From JAGLHV01 sp023132075 [NCBI: bacterium] (lineage in GTDB: Bacteria; CBDUZB01; JAGLHV01): 13,918 nt of DNA. The DNA lies in the NCBI GenBank assembly GCA_023132075.1, contig JAGLYT010000010.1:1-13918 (forward strand). The letters are read 5' to 3'. A program made the position numbers and the translations under genes. Shown here piece by piece: positions 13 to 8,434 of the stretch (position 1 is the first letter of the stretch; every line of letters starts with the position of its first letter). The notes below the pieces were generated by a model. It did no database searches. It saw only the letters and a list, made by a program, of their open reading frames with translations, and was not told where the DNA came from.

Positions 13-2031
13 ATGAAAATTTTATTCAATCTTCCCCTGGAAAAGAATTTTATTTCATTGATTCCTTTTATTGATCAATTAAATGCCCGGATGCTGGAGG
101 GCTATTTTGAAACTCATTCTTCGGGAATAGATTTGTTAAGTGGTTGTTTTAATCGAAATGAAATGTCCGGAATAAAACCGGAGCATTTAATGAAAATAGT
201 GAGTTTTTTATCACAAATATATGATTATACTTTAATAAATTTAGATAATGATTTTAATGACAATTCTCTTGCCTTGCTCGATAGTTCCAATTTAATAATG
301 TTAATGGTAACATCAGATCGTTTGTCTTTAGAAGGAGCAAAGGAAGTTCTTTCTACTCTTTATTCTTTTCACTACGCACCTCAATCGATAAAAATAGTTT
401 TAAATATGCGAAATACAGAAGAAACCTTTTATCCTTCAGAAGTAGAGGATTATTTTAAAAAAGGAATTTTTTATAAAATTAATTACGATTTTAAGAAAAA
501 ACCTTCATTTGTTAAGATAAACAGCGAGGTTTTTAATGAGTTAAATTTCAGGCAACTTCCTTTTTATAAATCTATTCAAGGGCTCACCTGGAAATTATTG
601 GAGGAAAACGTTTTTGTGTCGGAGGGTTTAGGTAAAGGGAGGTCAACTCTGGGTGAGGGGAAAAAACCCAATGATGTCGATTCGAAATTAAAGAGTGACG
701 AGGAAAACAATCAGGATAATATAAAAAACCAACAATTAGTGAGTAACAAAATTGGCCGGTTGAAAACACTTATTCAGGAACGATTAATTAGCGAAATGGA
801 TTTGAAAGGATTGGATTTTAAAGAAGCGGGAATTAATTTGGAAAAAGGGAAAGAAATCAAACAAAAAATTAAAGGGATGGTGGAAAGACTATTAAATGAA
901 GAAGGAAGTTTTATTACTAATCGCCGGCAGCGGGAAAAAATCATATCGGAATTATTGGATGACATTTTAGGGTTGGGTCCTTTAGAAAGACTTTTAAAAG
1001 ATTCTTCTGTTTCAGAAATTATGGTTAATAAGAAAGATGAAGTATATATCGAAAAGCAAGGAAAAATTGAATTGTCCGATATTAAGTTAGCAAGTAATCA
1101 GCAAATCCTTACTATTATTGAAAGAATTGTTGCCCCTTTAGGAAGACATATAGATGAAAGTTCTCCGTTAGTAGATGCTCGCTTAAAAGATGGTTCCCGT
1201 GTTAATGCTATTATTCCTCCTTTAGCTTTGGATGGTCCGGCAATAACTATTCGTAAGTTTACAGAAAACAAACTTACCCCTGATGACTTAATTAATTTGG
1301 GTTCTATAAGTAAAGAAATGATAGAATTTATTCGGATTTGTGTTCAACTGAAAAAAAACATTATTATCTCAGGAGGAACTGGGTCAGGTAAAACAACATT
1401 TTTAAATATTATTTCTTCTTTTGTTCCTCAGAATGAACGGATTATTACCATAGAAGATTCTGCTGAATTAAAATTGCCTCAGGGACATGTAGTTAGATTA
1501 GAATCCCGTCCACCGAATATCGAAGGAGAAGGGGAGATTTCTATTCGGCGGTTACTTATTAATTGCCTTAGAATGCGGCCGGACAGAATTATTATTGGTG
1601 AATGCAGAGGAGGAGAGGCAATTGATATGTTACAAGCAATGAATACAGGGCATGAAGGGTCGTTGACTACTTTACATGCCAATAATCCCCGGGATGCTTT
1701 ATCTCGCTTAGAAACGATGGTATTAATGTCGGGAATGGAACTTCCCTCACGGGCTATTCGTGACCAAATAGCCAATAGTATTAATATTATTGTTCAATTG
1801 AATCGTTTGAATGACGGGACGAGAAAGCTTACCTGTATTAGCGAGGTAACCGGTTTGCAAGGAGGTGTAATTACAACAGCGGATATTTTTAAGTTTATTC
1901 AAGAAGGAATTGATGAGCAGGGAAAAATAATTGGAAAATTCGAATTTACAGGGGTAATTCCGTCTTTTATTGGGAAAACAAAAACACATAATGTTTCTTT
2001 TGATGAGAGCATTTTTCAAAAGTCTTTATAA
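13..2031 (+). CDS. cpaF: Tad pilus secretion ATPase TadA/CpaF with N-terminal degenerate CpaE/TadZ-like domain
   Basis: Cytoplasmic hexameric ATPase that powers Tad (type IVb) pilus assembly together with TadB and TadC. Residues about 245-640 are a complete CpaF: Walker A GGTGSGKTT at 454-462, Walker B with RIIIGECRGGEA at 525-536, then the His-box region MLQAMNTGHEGSLTTLHAN. Residues 1 to about 200 instead resemble the second half of CpaE/TadZ (MinD-like): LLEGYFETHSSGIDLL-like start region, DYTLINLDND at 71-80 where the family has DYVIVDLPP, and a LVLN-like strand. The conserved Asp is Asn76 and no P-loop is visible, so this half is probably a non-catalytic adaptor. A hydrophilic linker (about 202-245) joins the halves. 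The frame has no stop between the window edge and Met1, so the protein may begin further upstream; an AAGGGA 4-5 nt before ATG supports this start. tadB and tadC follow on the same strand. The CpaF call is secure; the N-terminal assignment is by pattern only. Confidence 0.93.
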   Translation: MKILFNLPLEKNFISLIPFIDQLNARMLEGYFETHSSGIDLLSGCFNRNEMSGIKPEHLMKIVSFLSQIYDYTLINLDNDFNDNSLALLDSSNLIMLMVTSDRLSLEGAKEVLSTLYSFHYAPQSIKIVLNMRNTEETFYPSEVEDYFKKGIFYKINYDFKKKPSFVKINSEVFNELNFRQLPFYKSIQGLTWKLLEENVFVSEGLGKGRSTLGEGKKPNDVDSKLKSDEENNQDNIKNQQLVSNKIGRLKTLIQERLISEMDLKGLDFKEAGINLEKGKEIKQKIKGMVERLLNEEGSFITNRRQREKIISELLDDILGLGPLERLLKDSSVSEIMVNKKDEVYIEKQGKIELSDIKLASNQQILTIIERIVAPLGRHIDESSPLVDARLKDGSRVNAIIPPLALDGPAITIRKFTENKLTPDDLINLGSISKEMIEFIRICVQLKKNIIISGGTGSGKTTFLNIISSFVPQNERIITIEDSAELKLPQGHVVRLESRPPNIEGEGEISIRRLLINCLRMRPDRIIIGECRGGEAIDMLQAMNTGHEGSLTTLHANNPRDALSRLETMVLMSGMELPSRAIRDQIANSINIIVQLNRLNDGTRKLTCISEVTGLQGGVITTADIFKFIQEGIDEQGKIIGKFEFTGVIPSFIGKTKTHNVSFDESIFQKSL

Positions 2032-2051
2032 AAATTAAAAAAGGAGGAATA

Positions 2052-2519
2052 GTGAGAATGAAGTGTTATTGTCATCAGGAAGTAGATAGTATAGGGGAGT
2101 GTGTCGGTTGTGGAAAATTTGTTTGTGAAGAATGTAAGGTAGAAATGGATGGAAGAATTTATTGTAAAAAATGTTCGGATGATCTTACTGTCGCTATCAG
2201 AAAAGGACAGGTTAATCTGAATATTTCGGAAGAAGAAATTAAAGAAGGAAAGATTTGGGCTGTAGTAGCATATCTGGGAATTCTTTGTTTGCTTCCCCTT
2301 TTAATGAAGAAAGATAACCAATTTGCGCTTTTTCACGGCAAACAGGGATTAGTTCTTTTTCTTACTATTGTTATTGCGGGATGGATTCCTATTTTAGGAT
2401 GGTTTATTATTGTACCGATTGTTTTTATTTTAAATATTATTGGTGTCATTCAATCTTTGCGAGGTAAATGTTTCAAAATACCTATAATAGGTGAAATTGC
2501 AGAAAAGATAAAAATGTGA
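2052..2519 (+). CDS. Small membrane protein with N-terminal zinc-ribbon/B-box-like domain and DUF4870-like membrane domain
   Basis: Residues 4-42 hold nine cysteines and one histidine in a B-box-like pattern (CYCH, CVGCGKFVCEEC, YCKKC), expected to bind zinc in the cytoplasm. After a charged linker, residues about 74-140 form two or three hydrophobic helices. The short motif FALFHGKQGLVLF between the first two is the signature of the DUF4870 (Tic20-like) membrane family. Function is unknown; zinc-ribbon + DUF4870 proteins are common in environmental bacteria. It sits 20 bp after cpaF and 90 bp before tadB, so it is probably co-transcribed with the pilus genes, which is not part of the usual tad gene set. 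A strong AAGGAGG (2041-2047) lies 4 nt before GTG 2052 and 10 nt before ATG 2058; either could start translation, changing the protein by two residues. Confidence 0.85.
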   Translation: MRMKCYCHQEVDSIGECVGCGKFVCEECKVEMDGRIYCKKCSDDLTVAIRKGQVNLNISEEEIKEGKIWAVVAYLGILCLLPLLMKKDNQFALFHGKQGLVLFLTIVIAGWIPILGWFIIVPIVFILNIIGVIQSLRGKCFKIPIIGEIAEKIKM

Positions 2520-2609
2520 TATTTGGAATGGCATAGAAATTAGACAGATTAAAAGTTAATAATTTTATTGATTATCGTTATATTCATAACTTTTTGAAAA
2601 GGAAAGGTA

Positions 2610-3494
2610 ATGCAGGTAAAGATTGTTTTTTTTAAAGGATTAATTCTATCGGGTGTTTTTTTGGGGACGGTTTGGAGTGTTTTTAAAATTGTTTCTTTTT
2701 TTGACTCTTTTAGGAATTTGACAATTAGTGAAAAAAAAGACAAGGAGAAACGCTTGTATGAAAAGAAATGGTTTATAAACATTTTATTGAAAAAACCAAA
2801 AGCGAAATTTGCGTGGGTAATTGAATTTTTTAGTTTGGTAATGGGTATAAGTGTTGGATATTTATTTTTCGGCAGGCTTTTATGGGGTTTTGTCTTGGGT
2901 GGAGTTAGTTTTTTTATTCCTTCTCTTTGGGCAAAGAGGGAATTCGGGTTGTTTATGGATAAGTTTAACCAACAGCTTATTAATGGACTGGTATTGATAG
3001 CTAATTCCTTGCGGGCAGGAATGAGTTTTTTGCAGGGGATGGAAATAATGGTTAAGGAAAGTGGAATGCCTCTTTCCGGATGTTTTGAACGGGTACTTCA
3101 GGAAATAAATCTGGGTATGTCTCCTCAGGAAGCCTTAAACGGTTTAGTAGAGCGTATGCCCAACAAAGAGTTGAAAATTATCGTTGCTGCAATTAATATT
3201 ACCCGTCAAACCGGTGGAAACCTGAGTGAAATTTTAGATAACCTTTCTTTTACTATGAGGGAAAGGAAAAAAATTCAAGGCAAAATAAATGCTCTTACCG
3301 CACAGGGAAAAATGTCCGGCTGGATAGTGGGAATAATGCCCTTTATTTTGATGTTTATTTTAAACTTAATGTCACCGGAAATGATGTGGCCACTTTTTCA
3401 TACTCTGCCGGGATATGTGACTATTTTTGTAATTTGCTTTATGGTGGGCATAGCGGCTTTAATCATAAAAAATATTGTTTCCATTGATATATGA
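2610..3494 (+). CDS. tadB: Tad pilus inner-membrane platform protein TadB
   Basis: Integral inner-membrane protein that with TadC forms the platform on which the CpaF ATPase acts to insert pilin subunits. The 294-residue length is usual for TadB. Hydrophobic segments at about 12-30, 68-106, 236-254 and 268-288 flank a type II secretion F-type (GspF/T2SSF) domain at about 118-246. That domain includes NGLVLIANSLRAGMSFLQG, a GMSPQEAL segment and TRQTGGNLSEILDNLS, all characteristic of TadB. The N-terminal part between residues 32 and 66 is lysine-rich and cytoplasmic. The start has a GGAAAGG (2601-2607) two nt upstream of ATG, a close but usable spacing. It lies 90 bp after the zinc-ribbon gene; tadC, normally adjacent, is displaced by 430 bp. 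Confidence 0.92.
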   Translation: MQVKIVFFKGLILSGVFLGTVWSVFKIVSFFDSFRNLTISEKKDKEKRLYEKKWFINILLKKPKAKFAWVIEFFSLVMGISVGYLFFGRLLWGFVLGGVSFFIPSLWAKREFGLFMDKFNQQLINGLVLIANSLRAGMSFLQGMEIMVKESGMPLSGCFERVLQEINLGMSPQEALNGLVERMPNKELKIIVAAINITRQTGGNLSEILDNLSFTMRERKKIQGKINALTAQGKMSGWIVGIMPFILMFILNLMSPEMMWPLFHTLPGYVTIFVICFMVGIAALIIKNIVSIDI

Positions 3495-3507
3495 TAAAGA
3501 CAGTTAG

Positions 3508-3582
3508 TTGGTTATATTGGTTTAGATTGGTTGATTAAAGATGGTTGGAAAAGTTTTATTGGTTTAATTGGTTGAATTAGTT
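3508..3582 (+). repeat. TTGGTT-type degenerate tandem repeat
   Basis: TTGGTT occurs at 3508, 3517, 3527, 3559 and 3568 (a variant at 3542), mostly 9-10 bp apart. Two exact pieces, TTTAGATTGGTTG (3521-3533) and ATTGGTTGAATTAGTT (3567-3582), recur together at 12077-12103 in the opposite order. It lies just after the tadB stop. Role unknown. Confidence 0.75.
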
Positions 3583-3588
3583 AAAAAC

Positions 3589-3698
3589 AAAGACAGACAA
3601 AGACACAGATAAAGACAGGCATCCGCCTTAAAGATTGGCGGACTTTCGCTCCGCTTCAGCAAAGTTAAAAGATAAAGACAAAAATAAGAACAAAGACA
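3589..3698 (+). repeat. AAAGACA short-repeat tract
   Basis: AAAGACA occurs at 3589, 3599, 3611, 3674 and 3692, within A-rich purine sequence with no open frame. The tract is interrupted between copies three and four by the GC-rich double hairpin at 3622-3665. This looks like drifting intergenic repeat sequence, not a gene. Confidence 0.6.
3622..3665 (+). repeat. GC-rich double hairpin (REP-like)
   Basis: TCCGCC (3622-3627) pairs with GGCGGA (3637-3642) over a 9-nt loop. The adjoining ACTTT-C-GCT (3642-3650) pairs with AGC-AAAGT (3658-3665), leaving one bulged C. The strong GC content contrasts with the AT-rich surroundings. A second TCCGCC/GGCGGA hairpin with the same 9-nt loop size lies at 3791-3811, so these appear to be two copies of one repeat family. 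Confidence 0.7.
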
Positions 3699-3749
3699 AA
3701 AAACAGTCAAACATAGTCAAAAGATGTTGAATGATAAATTTGTTTGTAG

Positions 3750-3769
3750 TTGCTCAATTTATTGAGCAA
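3750..3769. repeat. Perfect inverted repeat TTGCTCAAT-TT-ATTGAGCAA
   Basis: Nine-base arms (3750-3758 and 3761-3769) are exact complements around a 2-nt centre, giving a near-perfect palindrome between tadB and tadC. There is no T-tract, so it is not an obvious intrinsic terminator. It could be a dimeric regulator's operator or another dispersed repeat. Confidence 0.6.
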
Positions 3770-3790
3770 AAATGGTTGGGATTTTGCTTG

Positions 3791-3811
3791 TCCGCCAGTC
3801 AGTAAGGCGGA
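3791..3811 (+). repeat. Second TCCGCC...GGCGGA hairpin
   Basis: TCCGCC at 3791-3796 pairs with GGCGGA at 3806-3811 around a 9-nt loop, matching the stem of the hairpin at 3622-3642. It is followed by ATTTAGGATTTAGATATTAG, an A/T repeat-like stretch without coding potential. Confidence 0.65.
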
Positions 3812-3884
3812 TTTAGGATTTAGATATTAGAATTTAGTATTTGTCTGTTTGCGTTTATGACAATGTATGATGCGAGCAAATCTT

Positions 3885-3912
3885 CCCCCTTTGAAAAAGG
3901 GGGTTAGGGGGA
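3885..3912 (+). repeat. CCCCCTTT-GAA-AAAGGGGG hairpin repeat upstream of tadC
   Basis: An 8-bp perfect stem (CCCCCTTT 3885-3892, AAAGGGGG 3896-3903) with a 3-nt loop is followed by TTAGGGGGA. The arrangement resembles a C/G-run hairpin repeat scattered in many environmental bacterial genomes (general knowledge, not searched). The second G-run (AGGGGGA, 3906-3912) ends 12 nt before the tadC ATG and is the only Shine-Dalgarno-like purine run there, so the repeat may supply or mask the ribosome site. Confidence 0.7.
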
Positions 3913-3924
3913 TTTAGACAAAAA

Positions 3925-4773
3925 ATGTATTGGTTAATATTGGTTTTGATTTTTATATTAGTATTTTTATTGACGATGGGATTTTTTTCGATAAAAGAAA
4001 AAATATTCTTTGTTCCAACCGTAAATGGATTAACAGGAAGGTTATCCTTAATAATTGGCCGATTACATCTGCCTTTTCTTGAAAATTTACGGAGTAAAAT
4101 AAAAAAGCAGTTATCTATGGCAGGTGTTATTGACGAATCTCCGGACTATGTTCTTGCCGGGCATTGTTTAAACGGTATGGTTTTTTCTTTTTTAGGGGCA
4201 ATACTTTCTTTAATTTTCTTTGATTTAATAAAAGGATATATTCTAATAGGTTTTTTTGTTCTGGGATTCATTTTGTCCGTTTATAAACTTAAAGAAAGAA
4301 TAAAAAAAAGACATTGTGCTATTTTACGTGCTCTACCGGATGTTTTGGATATTTTAACGGTAGCAGTGGAAGCAGGCTTGGATTTTAATGCCGCATTAAT
4401 TAAATTAATTGAATTGGAAGCTCAAAATAATCCGTTGGTAAAAGAGATTTTCCAAATGCAGCAGGAAGTCTATGTGGGAAGCAGCCGGATAGAATCTTTA
4501 TACAATATGGCAGCAAGGGTGGATGAGCCGGGTTTATCTGCAGTTTGTTCTTCTTTGATACAGGCAATTAAAATGGGAACAAGCCTTGGGCCTATTTTAC
4601 GTCTGCAATCAGAGCAGATTAGAGTTCAGCGTTTTCAAAAAGCAGAAAAATTAGCCGGTGAAGCTCCGGTAAAAATGCTTTTTCCGTTGATTTTCTTGAT
4701 TTTACCAACAGTTTTTCTTGTTTTGTTTGTTCCGTTGATTTTGACTTATATATCTAGTGGAGTAGAGTTTTAA
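3925..4773 (+). CDS. tadC: Tad pilus inner-membrane platform protein TadC
   Basis: Partner of TadB in the Tad pilus inner-membrane platform. It has 282 residues with hydrophobic segments at 1-21, about 83-98, 103-120 and 250-275, and a GspF-like (T2SSF) domain at about 133-258. The family hallmarks are present: RALPDVLDILTVAVEAGLDF at 135-154, QAIKMGTSLGPILRLQSEQI, and the C-terminal EKLAGEAPVKMLFPLIFLIL followed by a hydrophobic tail. The start ATG 3925 has no standard ribosome site; only a G-rich run from the hairpin repeat lies 12 nt upstream. The gene is separated from tadB by 430 bp of repeats, so it may have its own transcript. It converges with the sensor gene on the other strand, 52 bp away, with no clear terminator between them. 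Confidence 0.93.
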   Translation: MYWLILVLIFILVFLLTMGFFSIKEKIFFVPTVNGLTGRLSLIIGRLHLPFLENLRSKIKKQLSMAGVIDESPDYVLAGHCLNGMVFSFLGAILSLIFFDLIKGYILIGFFVLGFILSVYKLKERIKKRHCAILRALPDVLDILTVAVEAGLDFNAALIKLIELEAQNNPLVKEIFQMQQEVYVGSSRIESLYNMAARVDEPGLSAVCSSLIQAIKMGTSLGPILRLQSEQIRVQRFQKAEKLAGEAPVKMLFPLIFLILPTVFLVLFVPLILTYISSGVEF

Positions 4774-7384: not shown

Positions 7385-7413
7385 TTGACAAAATTAAGCA
7401 GGGGTGTTAGTTT
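7385..7413 (+). promoter_or_regulatory. Promoter of the c-di-GMP riboswitch transcript
   Basis: A perfect -35 TTGACA (7385-7390) is followed after 17 bp by TAGTTT (7408-7413) preceded by TGT, an extended -10 arrangement. It starts 2 nt after the HEAT gene stop codon. AAGCAGGGGTGT (7397-7408) and AAGCAGAGGTGT (7416-7427) form a direct repeat 19 bp apart over the -10 and start region and could be a regulator site. Confidence 0.5.
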
Positions 7414-7473
7414 TAAAGCAGAGGTGTGATAAAAGACACATTCTTTTAAGTTGCCAGATTTTAAAATATTTAA

Positions 7474-7555
7474 CTCTGATAAGGGCAAACCTCAGGAAAC
7501 TGGGGGGCGCAAAACTACGGTTCCATATTTAAGGTGGAAGGCTGAGTTGCCAGAG
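7474..7555 (+). promoter_or_regulatory. Cyclic-di-GMP-I (GEMM-I) riboswitch aptamer
   Basis: The RNA matches the GEMM-I layout. A closing stem CTCTG/CAGAG (7474-7478 with 7551-7555) leads into GGGCAAACC (7483-7491). A first hairpin CCTCAG-GAAA-CTGGGG (about 7490-7505) carries the family's GAAA tetraloop, then comes CGCAAA (7508-7513). A second hairpin with GGTTCC/GGAAGG (7519-7524, 7536-7541) follows, and the 3' strand GAGTTGCC (7544-7551) closes it. The base aligning with Vc2 G20 is G7485 and with C92 is C7550 (numbering recalled from the Vibrio Vc2 structure). A G at this position favours c-di-GMP over the A-containing variant that senses 3',3'-cGAMP. It is followed 13 nt later by an intrinsic terminator and then the gene at 7641. 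Confidence 0.92.
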
Positions 7556-7568
7556 GGAAGATTTGTGG

Positions 7569-7611
7569 AACCGGATTAACCGTAATAAAAGCGGTATAAT
7601 CCGGTTTTTTT
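7569..7611 (+). terminator. Riboswitch expression platform: intrinsic terminator
   Basis: The left arm AACCGGATTA-ACCG (7569-7582) pairs with CGGT-A-TAATCCGGTT (7592-7606). This gives a 14-bp stem with one bulged A and a 9-nt loop, followed by a T-run to 7611. The base of the left arm (TGTGGAACCG, 7564-7573) is also complementary to aptamer bases 7518-7527, giving an alternative antiterminator. Ligand binding should lock the aptamer, release the left arm and terminate transcription (an OFF switch). Confidence 0.9.
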
Positions 7612-7640: not shown

Positions 7641-8102
7641 ATGAAAAAAAGAAAGCTTTTGATTTTTGTGTTTCTTATTTTTTCTGTGTCGGCCGGAAAA
7701 ATTTATGCTTCTTGTTTTAGTTCCCATTTTAATGCGGTGAAGATTGAATTTAATAAATCTTTTCAGTTTGCAACAACCCATGATTTTTGTTTTCGGGCAA
7801 AAGTACAATCGTTGCCTCTTTATTTGGTTTTTCCTGATATGGACATTAGAGATGAAGGGAATAGGCCAATACGGGATTACAAGAATTTGTTTTTAGATAT
7901 CAGGAATAATCAATATGAAATCTTTAATGTTTGGGGAATTATTAAGAAAAAAAGCAGGTTCAAAAATATAAGATTGCAGTTGGTAAATTTAAATAAGTTG
8001 CAAATTAGATCTTCACAAAAGAATACGAAACATTTTTTTATTACCCTTCTGATTTTCGAAGAAGTTGACCTTTCTTTAAAGTATAGCACTTTTTTGTGCT
8101 GA
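7641..8102 (+). CDS. Small exported protein of unknown function under riboswitch control
   Basis: I do not recognise this 153-residue protein. It starts with a clear signal peptide (KKRK, then a hydrophobic stretch 6-17, with likely cleavage near IYA-S at 22-25). The mature part is mixed alpha/beta in character, with aromatic and basic residues, a few cysteines (25, 50, 153) and no further membrane helix. ATG 7641 has an AAAGGA-type ribosome site about 9 nt upstream and lies 29 nt after the riboswitch terminator, so it is the first gene exposed to c-di-GMP control. Since c-di-GMP-I switches usually govern adhesins, pilus, matrix or motility genes, a surface role is plausible but inferred. A 5-bp hairpin AGCAC/GTGCT overlaps the last codons. 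Confidence 0.7.
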   Translation: MKKRKLLIFVFLIFSVSAGKIYASCFSSHFNAVKIEFNKSFQFATTHDFCFRAKVQSLPLYLVFPDMDIRDEGNRPIRDYKNLFLDIRNNQYEIFNVWGIIKKKSRFKNIRLQLVNLNKLQIRSSQKNTKHFFITLLIFEEVDLSLKYSTFLC

Positions 8103-8254: not shown

Positions 8255-8434
8255 ATGAATTTACGAATAGTTTTTGAACCATTGGCAGACGGAGGCTTCA
8301 TGGTTTCCTGTCCGGATCTTCCGGGTTGTTCGGCACATGGGAAAACTTTTAACGATGCATTGATAAAAATAAAGGAAGTTATTCAGCAATATCTTCAATA
8401 TAAAGTGCAGAACAAATCTATTCTCTTGAATTAG
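8255..8434 (+). CDS. HicB-like antitoxin-type small protein (orphan)
   Basis: This 59-residue frame begins MNLRIVFEPLADGGFMVSCP and continues DLPGCSAHGKTFNDALIKIK. It is the compact beta-beta-alpha HicB/UPF0150 fold: a hydrophobic first strand, GG turn, the hallmark V-S-x-P-D-L-P-G-C, and a helix with AL-x-x-I-K-E-x-I. A strong ribosome site CGGAGGA (8243-8249) lies 5 nt before ATG. HicB proteins normally neutralise the HicA mRNA-interferase toxin, or act alone as a nuclease-like or regulatory domain. There is no C-terminal DNA-binding domain here and no hicA frame on either side, only a five-codon frame downstream, so it is an orphan or a relic of a toxin-antitoxin pair. Confidence 0.8.
   Translation: MNLRIVFEPLADGGFMVSCPDLPGCSAHGKTFNDALIKIKEVIQQYLQYKVQNKSILLN

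What the first reader, a model, noticed from the sequence alone, without database searches (positions are those of the whole stretch)
7474..7611. c-di-GMP-I riboswitch with a readable OFF-switch mechanism controlling an unknown exported protein
Seen: aptamer core GGGCAAACC, GAAA-capped hairpin, CGCAAA and the closing CTCTG/CAGAG stem, then a strong terminator. Bases 7518-7527 of the aptamer's second hairpin can pair with 7564-7573 (10 bp, one G-U) at the base of the terminator's left arm. Ligand would stabilise the aptamer hairpin and allow termination. The gene at 7641 has no recognised function, so a c-di-GMP-controlled surface factor may be new.
Basis: partly seen in the sequence, partly recalled or inferred. 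Interest (0 to 1): 0.85.

Follow-up and report, generated by a model that had tools for sequence, protein, structure and literature searches.

The report
Cyclic-di-GMP OFF switch for exported protein
An RNA sensor for the bacterial signal c-di-GMP sits in front of an apparently exported protein of unknown function, and comparison with related genomes suggests that the signal turns this gene off while similar sensors turn some other genes on.

Summary
Window 7474-7555 matches Rfam c-di-GMP-I (RF01051, 63.8 bits, cut-off 35) and the variant c-di-GMP-I-GGC (RF03167, 62.0, cut-off 59). Its pocket letters (G20, A47, C92) are those of c-di-GMP-I; the GGC model's G47 is absent. A terminator follows. 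That exact helix is intact only in the window and its closest ortholog (2 of 7 family leaders). Another helix of the same strand (7514-7520 with 7580-7586) keeps 6-7 of 7 pairs in all seven and covaries modestly across 16 leaders. The 153-aa apparently exported protein has no Pfam or NCBIfam match and no confident fold; all seven homologous genes found in three genomes of the genus have the riboswitch upstream. The genus carries 12, 12 and 19 such aptamers (one below cut-off); in some others the terminator is built from the aptamer's own 3' strand, predicted ON. So: a new member of a known class, in a regulon of predicted mixed sign. The mechanism is computational; ligand binding was not tested.

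The parts
7385..7413 (+). Promoter candidate: TTGACA 7385-7390, 17 bases, TAGTTT 7408-7413 (weak -10)
   Evidence: Read; TTGACA is present upstream in all seven family leaders (by eye). Not listed by the consensus scan. Inference.
7425..7440 (.). Palindrome TGTGATAAAAGACACA, CRP-like (TGTGA-N6-TCACA with one mismatch), just after the inferred start site
   Evidence: Present in 7 of 7 family leaders, exact in 4 of them. The motif is not enriched genome-wide over its reversed control when one mismatch is allowed (63 against 64 sites; exact 6 against 3).
7474..7555 (+). c-di-GMP-I riboswitch aptamer; P1 7474-7478 with 7551-7555, P2 7490-7505, P3 7513-7548
   Evidence: RF01051 63.8 bits, RF03167 62.0 bits. 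Aptamer plus terminator pairs in seven leaders: 95.2% of cells paired, 10 pairs with changes on both sides, each reached by 0 of 500 shuffles; the count of further pair types does not exceed shuffles.
7484..7484 (+). Ligand-pocket base at position 20: G
   Evidence: Alignment. Numbering of the Vc2 structure is recalled.
7511..7511 (+). Ligand-pocket base at position 47: A (the GGC model has G here)
   Evidence: Alignment; RF01051 consensus.
7550..7550 (+). Ligand-pocket base at position 92: C
   Evidence: Alignment.
7514..7520 (+). Antiterminator strand 1 (5' strand of P3), conserved form
   Evidence: Pairs with 7580-7586; 6 or 7 of 7 pairs in all seven family leaders; across 16 leaders 102 of 112 pairs, 1 of 5000 permutations as high.
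7580..7586 (+). Antiterminator strand 2, top of the terminator's left arm and start of its loop
   Evidence: Same calls as strand 1.
7518..7527 (+).
   Evidence: 10 of 10 pairs in the window and G2_C193, 8 of 10 in G1_C75, 5-6 of 10 in the other four.
7564..7573 (+).
   Evidence: As above; present in the minimum-energy fold of transcripts ending from 7574 to 7602.
7568..7611 (+). Intrinsic terminator: hairpin 7568-7607 and U-tract 7605-7611
   Evidence: -20.6 kcal/mol; four stem pairs with changes on both sides among seven leaders.
7641..8102 (+). Controlled gene: 153-aa protein with an apparent N-terminal signal sequence (by eye), function unknown
   Evidence: ORF; no Pfam or NCBIfam match; homologs seen only in the genus, apart from one weak match with stops; structure prediction failed.

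Best explanation
This is a c-di-GMP-I riboswitch working as a transcriptional OFF switch. During transcription the aptamer (7474-7555) folds first. If c-di-GMP binds, P3 stays closed, the strand that could invade it stays free, and the terminator at 7568-7611 forms: the gene at 7641 is not transcribed. Without c-di-GMP, the 5' strand of P3 leaves its partner and pairs with the emerging left arm of the terminator, in the window through 7518-7527/7564-7573 and in the family generally through the register of 7514-7520/7580-7586; polymerase then reads through. Shown: aptamer family match, terminator, the competing helices, their conservation and the order of minimum-energy states. Inferred: the ligand, the sign, the kinetics, and that the protein is exported.
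For: Family match well over the RF01051 cut-off. An OFF-like signature in 15 of 16 leaders of this platform. Covariation in aptamer and terminator and, more weakly, in the antiterminator. All seven homologs of the gene have the riboswitch upstream. GGDEF domains in all three genomes: 7, 8 and 9 matches.
Against: No binding or transcription was measured. The cmscan winner by E-value is RF03167, not RF01051. In the window the conserved helix has one C-A mismatch, and forcing seven pairs in its register (7516-7522 with 7578-7584) gives -36.4, far above the other states. Minimum energies ignore tertiary contacts and kinetics. Antiterminator covariation within the seven leaders alone is weak: 21 of 500 shuffles reach the covariation score and 254 of 500 the number of pairs changed on both sides. 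The 16 leaders were picked by eye from 43 by a CCGUAG-like motif, and the permutation segments were located by that motif, which favours pairing. Two of the 16 (C346, C11) had no terminator found by the script; C11 still counts as OFF-like with an end taken from a looser pattern.
Confidence: 0.8

Rival explanations
1. The aptamer belongs to the GGC variant class and senses another ligand.
For: RF03167 matches above its cut-off (62.0 against 59) and is the clan's best E-value.
Against: The GGC and UAU models read G,G,C and U,A,U at positions 20, 47 and 92, so the names appear to be these three letters; the window reads G,A,C, as RF01051 does. All 43 leaders of the genus read A at 47: 40 by script, 3 by eye in the output after the script hit the P2 stem. 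RF01051 gives the higher bit score for this aptamer (63.8).
Confidence: 0.07
2. The aptamer senses 3',3'-cGAMP, or both dinucleotides.
For: Four of 43 leaders in the genus carry A at position 20, the change associated with cGAMP sensing (position recalled; a pocket change of this kind is described in PMC9481103, passages seen). The window itself is not one of them.
Against: G at position 20 in the window.
Confidence: 0.06
3. It is an ON switch: ligand binding favours read-through.
For: Some other leaders in the genus look like ON switches, with the aptamer's 3' strand in the terminator's left arm.
Against: In the window the terminator starts at 7568, after the aptamer ends, and the two coexist in the final minimum-energy fold.
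Confidence: 0.05
4. A decayed riboswitch that no longer regulates.
For: One sister leader looks decayed: G0_C346 lacks the CC around position 92, and no terminator was found for it. In C. difficile 630 only seven of twelve class I copies are functional (PMC6366702, passages seen).
Against: The window keeps all pairs of P1, P2 and P3, and the seven family leaders keep 5 of 5 pairs of P1 and 12-13 of 13 pairs of P3; the structure as a whole shows compensating changes.
Confidence: 0.05

Closest known systems
Cd1 riboswitch of Clostridioides difficile (class I, OFF; PMC9262584: abstract, part 1 of 2 of the introduction and passages seen)
   Same: Class I aptamer, terminator downstream and compatible with the aptamer, transient antiterminator, OFF.
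   Different: In Cd1 the antiterminator involves the aptamer-stabilising strand A with T and H (Figure 1 legend and passages). Here the 5' strand of P3 pairs with the terminator's left arm.
pilM riboswitch of Geobacter metallireducens (cGAMP, ON; same paper)
   Same: Its architecture, where aptamer and terminator exclude each other, resembles some other leaders of this genus (C323b, C72b, C67 and more).
   Different: Not the window's architecture; ligand differs.
Rfam RF03167 c-di-GMP-I-GGC
   Same: Overall shape and score.
   Different: G at position 47 in the model, A in the window.
C. difficile c-di-GMP riboswitch regulon (PMC6366702, PMC11477304: passages seen)
   Same: Twelve class I copies in one genome, several in front of small proteins of unknown function or surface proteins.
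   Different: There the functional class I copies are all OFF and class II copies are ON; here class I copies are predicted to do both.

Membership tests
c-di-GMP-I riboswitch (RF01051) | Covariance-model score over the curated cut-off | tested here: met
   63.8 bits against 35
c-di-GMP-I riboswitch (RF01051) | Pocket letters G20, A47, C92 | tested here: met
   7484 G, 7511 A, 7550 C, from the alignments
c-di-GMP-I riboswitch (RF01051) | GNRA loop of P2 docking in P3 | tested here: inconclusive
   GAAA loop at 7496-7499 is present; docking was not modelled
c-di-GMP-I riboswitch (RF01051) | Selective binding of c-di-GMP | not testable with these tools
   Needs in-line probing or calorimetry
c-di-GMP-I-GGC (RF03167) | Score over the curated cut-off | tested here: met
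   62.0 bits against 59
c-di-GMP-I-GGC (RF03167) | G at position 47 (that this letter defines the class is my inference from model consensus and name) | tested here: not met
   A at 7511
Transcriptional OFF switch, Cd1 type | Terminator compatible with the folded aptamer; antiterminator excludes the aptamer | tested here: met
   Folding; OFF-like in 15 of 16 leaders of this platform; computational only
Transcriptional OFF switch, Cd1 type | Antiterminator built from the aptamer's strand A | tested here: not met
   It is built from the 5' strand of P3

The most novel reading that the evidence does not exclude
In this genus one aptamer class, with one ligand, runs a two-way surface programme at the level of transcription termination. 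Genes whose terminator lies wholly beyond the aptamer are switched off by c-di-GMP, and genes whose terminator is built from the aptamer's own 3' strand are switched on, with the sign kept across species for several gene groups. Some leaders carry a second copy of the aptamer's 3' half as the terminator arm, which could be the step by which the sign was inverted.
Probability: 0.4. Interest if true: 0.55.

Novelty: new member of a known kind. Interest (0 to 1): 0.38.

Why it matters
Class I c-di-GMP riboswitches are well known, so the element itself is not a surprise. What it adds is a dense set of natural examples (12, 12 and 19 aptamers in three related genomes) in which similar aptamers appear to drive opposite outcomes, so that the sequence rule that sets ON or OFF can be read and tested. 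It also ties a protein family of unknown function, seen only in this genus in these searches, to c-di-GMP, in a regulon that includes genes resembling pilus and secreted proteins.

Tried and rejected
The GGC-variant reading was considered because Rfam ranks it first, and rejected on A47. The name c-di-GMP-I-GGC occurs in 3 held papers (listing only); I opened none of them. The original paper on variant classes is not held, so the meaning of the names GGC and UAU is inferred from the Rfam consensus lines.

The idea that the terminator's left arm in the window is a copy of the aptamer's 3' strand was tested and rejected for the window: local similarity is at chance (214 of 300 shuffles as high). 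Of the 22 leaders tested there, it is clear in the four with a full second copy (C69, C9, C336a, C178b: 0 of 300 each), and suggestive in C191 (2 of 300), C183 (9 of 300) and C323a (9 of 300, but there the match lies on the right arm); the rest range from 16 to 298 of 300.

A genome-wide CRP regulon was considered because of the palindrome at 7425-7440. Exact sites are 6 against 3 in the reversed control; with one mismatch 63 against 64. One exact site precedes another riboswitch (G2_C32) and one lies on a contig with none found (G2 C68).

Structure prediction of the protein from five sequences failed (mean pLDDT 37.9, pTM 0.27), so no fold search was made.

Limits of the 43-leader comparison. 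Weak own-genome matches below the RF01051 cut-off (two on C257, one on C338) and all aptamers outside the genus were left out. The terminator script found a hairpin for 37 of 43 leaders: 14 overlap the aptamer and 23 are separate, of which G1_C31a is a wrong hairpin far downstream and G2_C48 a doubtful one; none was found for C354, C346, C125, C11, C122 and C86. The energy labels (21 OFF-like, 15 ON-like, 7 unclear) are rough. C179 is labelled OFF-like although its terminator uses the aptamer strand and its ortholog C56 is ON-like. The duplicated-strand leaders disagree among orthologs (C69 ON-like, C9 OFF-like; C336a OFF-like, C31b ON-like, C178b unclear). C354, C122 and C125 have no terminator and their labels mean nothing. 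In that script I set the end of the U-tract by hand for four leaders and the end of the aptamer by hand for four others. Orthology between leaders was judged by eye from the downstream proteins.

Full report
The aptamer. A scan of the whole window against Rfam gives one significant RNA: c-di-GMP-I-GGC (RF03167) at 7475-7555, 62.0 bits against a cut-off of 59 (the only other match, mir-184, is at E 0.16 and far below its cut-off). The related family c-di-GMP-I (RF01051) matches the same place with 63.8 bits against a cut-off of 35. The models differ at the ligand pocket. At positions 20, 47 and 92 (numbering of the Vc2 structure, recalled) RF03167 reads G, G, C; RF03168 (UAU) reads U, A, U; RF01051 reads G, A, C (consensus lines). 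The window reads G (7484), A (7511), C (7550). I therefore take it for an ordinary c-di-GMP-I pocket. That the three letters in the Rfam names are these positions is my inference; the naming paper is not held.

The switch. The terminator lies at 7568-7611, wholly beyond the aptamer. Folding the growing transcript gives three stages. From 7558 to 7570 the aptamer is closed (-28.1 kcal/mol). This is the order expected of a kinetically controlled OFF switch. These are minimum energies without ligand, tertiary contacts or kinetics, at steps of four bases.

Conservation. Homologs of the 153-aa protein were sought in 60 genomes: matches at E <= 0.01 occurred in 4, namely the own genome, two of the same genus, and one weak match with two stops that I take for chance. 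The genus gives seven genes (one cut by a contig end), and each has a riboswitch just upstream. A scan of genome contigs with the family profile, which uses two short peptide patterns, found four loci in two metagenome-assembled genomes titled 'Clostridia bacterium isolate CSMAG_496' and 'bacterium isolate RS_2_16'; their contig lengths equal those of G002 and G001 contigs, so they are probably the same genomes and not independent. The CSMAG prefix is that of a global cold-seep catalogue (PMC10491686, one passage seen).

On an alignment of the seven leaders, aptamer plus terminator pairs are formed in 95.2% of cells, with 10 pairs changed on both sides (0 of 500 shuffles as high for each; the number of further pair types does not exceed shuffles, 496 of 500). 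A second helix, 7514-7520 with 7580-7586, keeps 6 or 7 of 7 pairs in all seven (shuffles 21 of 500 for cells paired). Over 16 leaders with this platform it forms 102 of 112 pairs, 1 of 5000 permutations as high; with one leader for each of eight groups that I judged orthologous, 51 of 56, 7 of 5000. The telling position is 53, A-U in 13 and G-C in 3. These 16 were chosen by eye from 43 for a CCGUAG-like motif, so part of the pairing is built into the choice.

The regulon. RF01051 finds 12 aptamers over the cut-off in the window's own genome, 12 in G001, and 18 in G002 plus one just below. Beyond the genus, 10 of the other 57 genomes searched have a match at E <= 0.001. None of those 57 is closer than 'same domain' in that listing, so the lineage is isolated among the genomes held. 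Of ten downstream proteins of the own genome put to Pfam, one is a DUF7305 protein (prepilin-like by eye) with a PilZ-domain protein nearby, one a TadE-like protein below Pfam's cut-off, one a subtilase, one has only weak matches, and five have none. GGDEF domains are present in all three genomes (7, 8 and 9 matches).

Two platforms recur. In one, as in the window, the terminator is separate from the aptamer. In the other, its left arm includes the aptamer's own 3' strand (14 of 43 by script), so that ligand binding should prevent termination. By a rough energy criterion 15 of 16 leaders of the first kind look OFF (the sixteenth, C346, has no clear terminator), and the 43 leaders together give 21 OFF-like, 15 ON-like and 7 unclear. 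The sign agrees within several gene groups: the 153-aa family 7 of 7 OFF-like; C112a, C11, C169a 3 of 3 OFF-like; C336b, C31a, C178a 3 of 3 ON-like; C323b, C140, C72b 3 of 3 ON-like; C67, C86 2 of 2 ON-like. It disagrees in others (C179 and C56; C69 and C9; C336a, C31b and C178b).

Comparison. In C. difficile the functional class I riboswitches are all OFF and class II are ON; V. cholerae has two class I riboswitches of opposite sign that do not work by termination; Bacillus thuringiensis has a class I ON switch (PMC6366702, passages seen). The Cd1 and pilM riboswitches are the nearest worked-out examples of OFF and ON that I found (PMC9262584: abstract, part 1 of the introduction and passages seen). 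The window resembles Cd1 in logic but uses another strand for the antiterminator. I did not search the literature for this strand choice specifically, so I make no claim that it is unreported.

Verdict. A sound observation and a largely right reading: a c-di-GMP-I OFF switch in front of a protein of unknown function. The class and the logic are known; the interest lies in the predicted mixed-sign regulon and in the consistent link (7 of 7) with a protein family so far seen only in this genus.

Noticed in passing
window 7425-7440: CRP-like palindrome just after the inferred transcription start, in all seven leaders of the protein family and exact in four. Each genome has one or two proteins with a cNMP-binding domain; the one read in G000 and G002 has a CRP-like helix-turn-helix by eye. 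It could be a repressor site or a 5' RNA hairpin.
   Followed up: partly
L036 (C69), L095 (C9), L033 (C336a), L075 (C31b), L088 (C178b), L099 (C32): c-di-GMP-I leaders with a second copy of the aptamer's 3' half, which forms the terminator's left arm (C31b and C32 by eye only). Both copies might complete the aptamer, so which one does may decide the outcome.
   Followed up: partly
L039 6873-7043 (C257): Two weak partial aptamer matches 35 bases apart, below the cut-off, as if one aptamer were interrupted between P2 and P3 by several tens of bases. G2_C32 (L099) also appears to have an insert between P2 and P3.
   Followed up: no
L037 3265-3345 (C179), L093 (C56), L074 (C125), L076 (C323b): Four leaders with A at position 20, a change linked to cGAMP sensing (recalled). 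C125 and C323b have apparent orthologs with G there. C179 matches the UAU model over its cut-off (70.2 bits, cut-off 65.9).
   Followed up: partly
L034 (C354), L087 (C122), L074 (C125): Aptamers whose downstream ATG, of a subtilase gene in C354 and its apparent orthologs, lies two bases after the match, with no terminator found: perhaps translational control.
   Followed up: no
window 8255-8434: Short HicB-like antitoxin gene (59 aa, PF15919, 32.8 bits, cut-off 27), also present at the same place after G2_C193. I did not look for a toxin partner.
   Followed up: partly
window 13-4773: Genes of Tad or type II secretion kind: a T2SSE ATPase and two T2SSF membrane proteins.
   Followed up: no
window 7449-7458 and 7545-7554: The ten bases AGTTGCCAGA occur upstream of the aptamer and again in its 3' strand. 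The upstream copy is not kept in the closest ortholog, so it is probably chance.
   Followed up: partly
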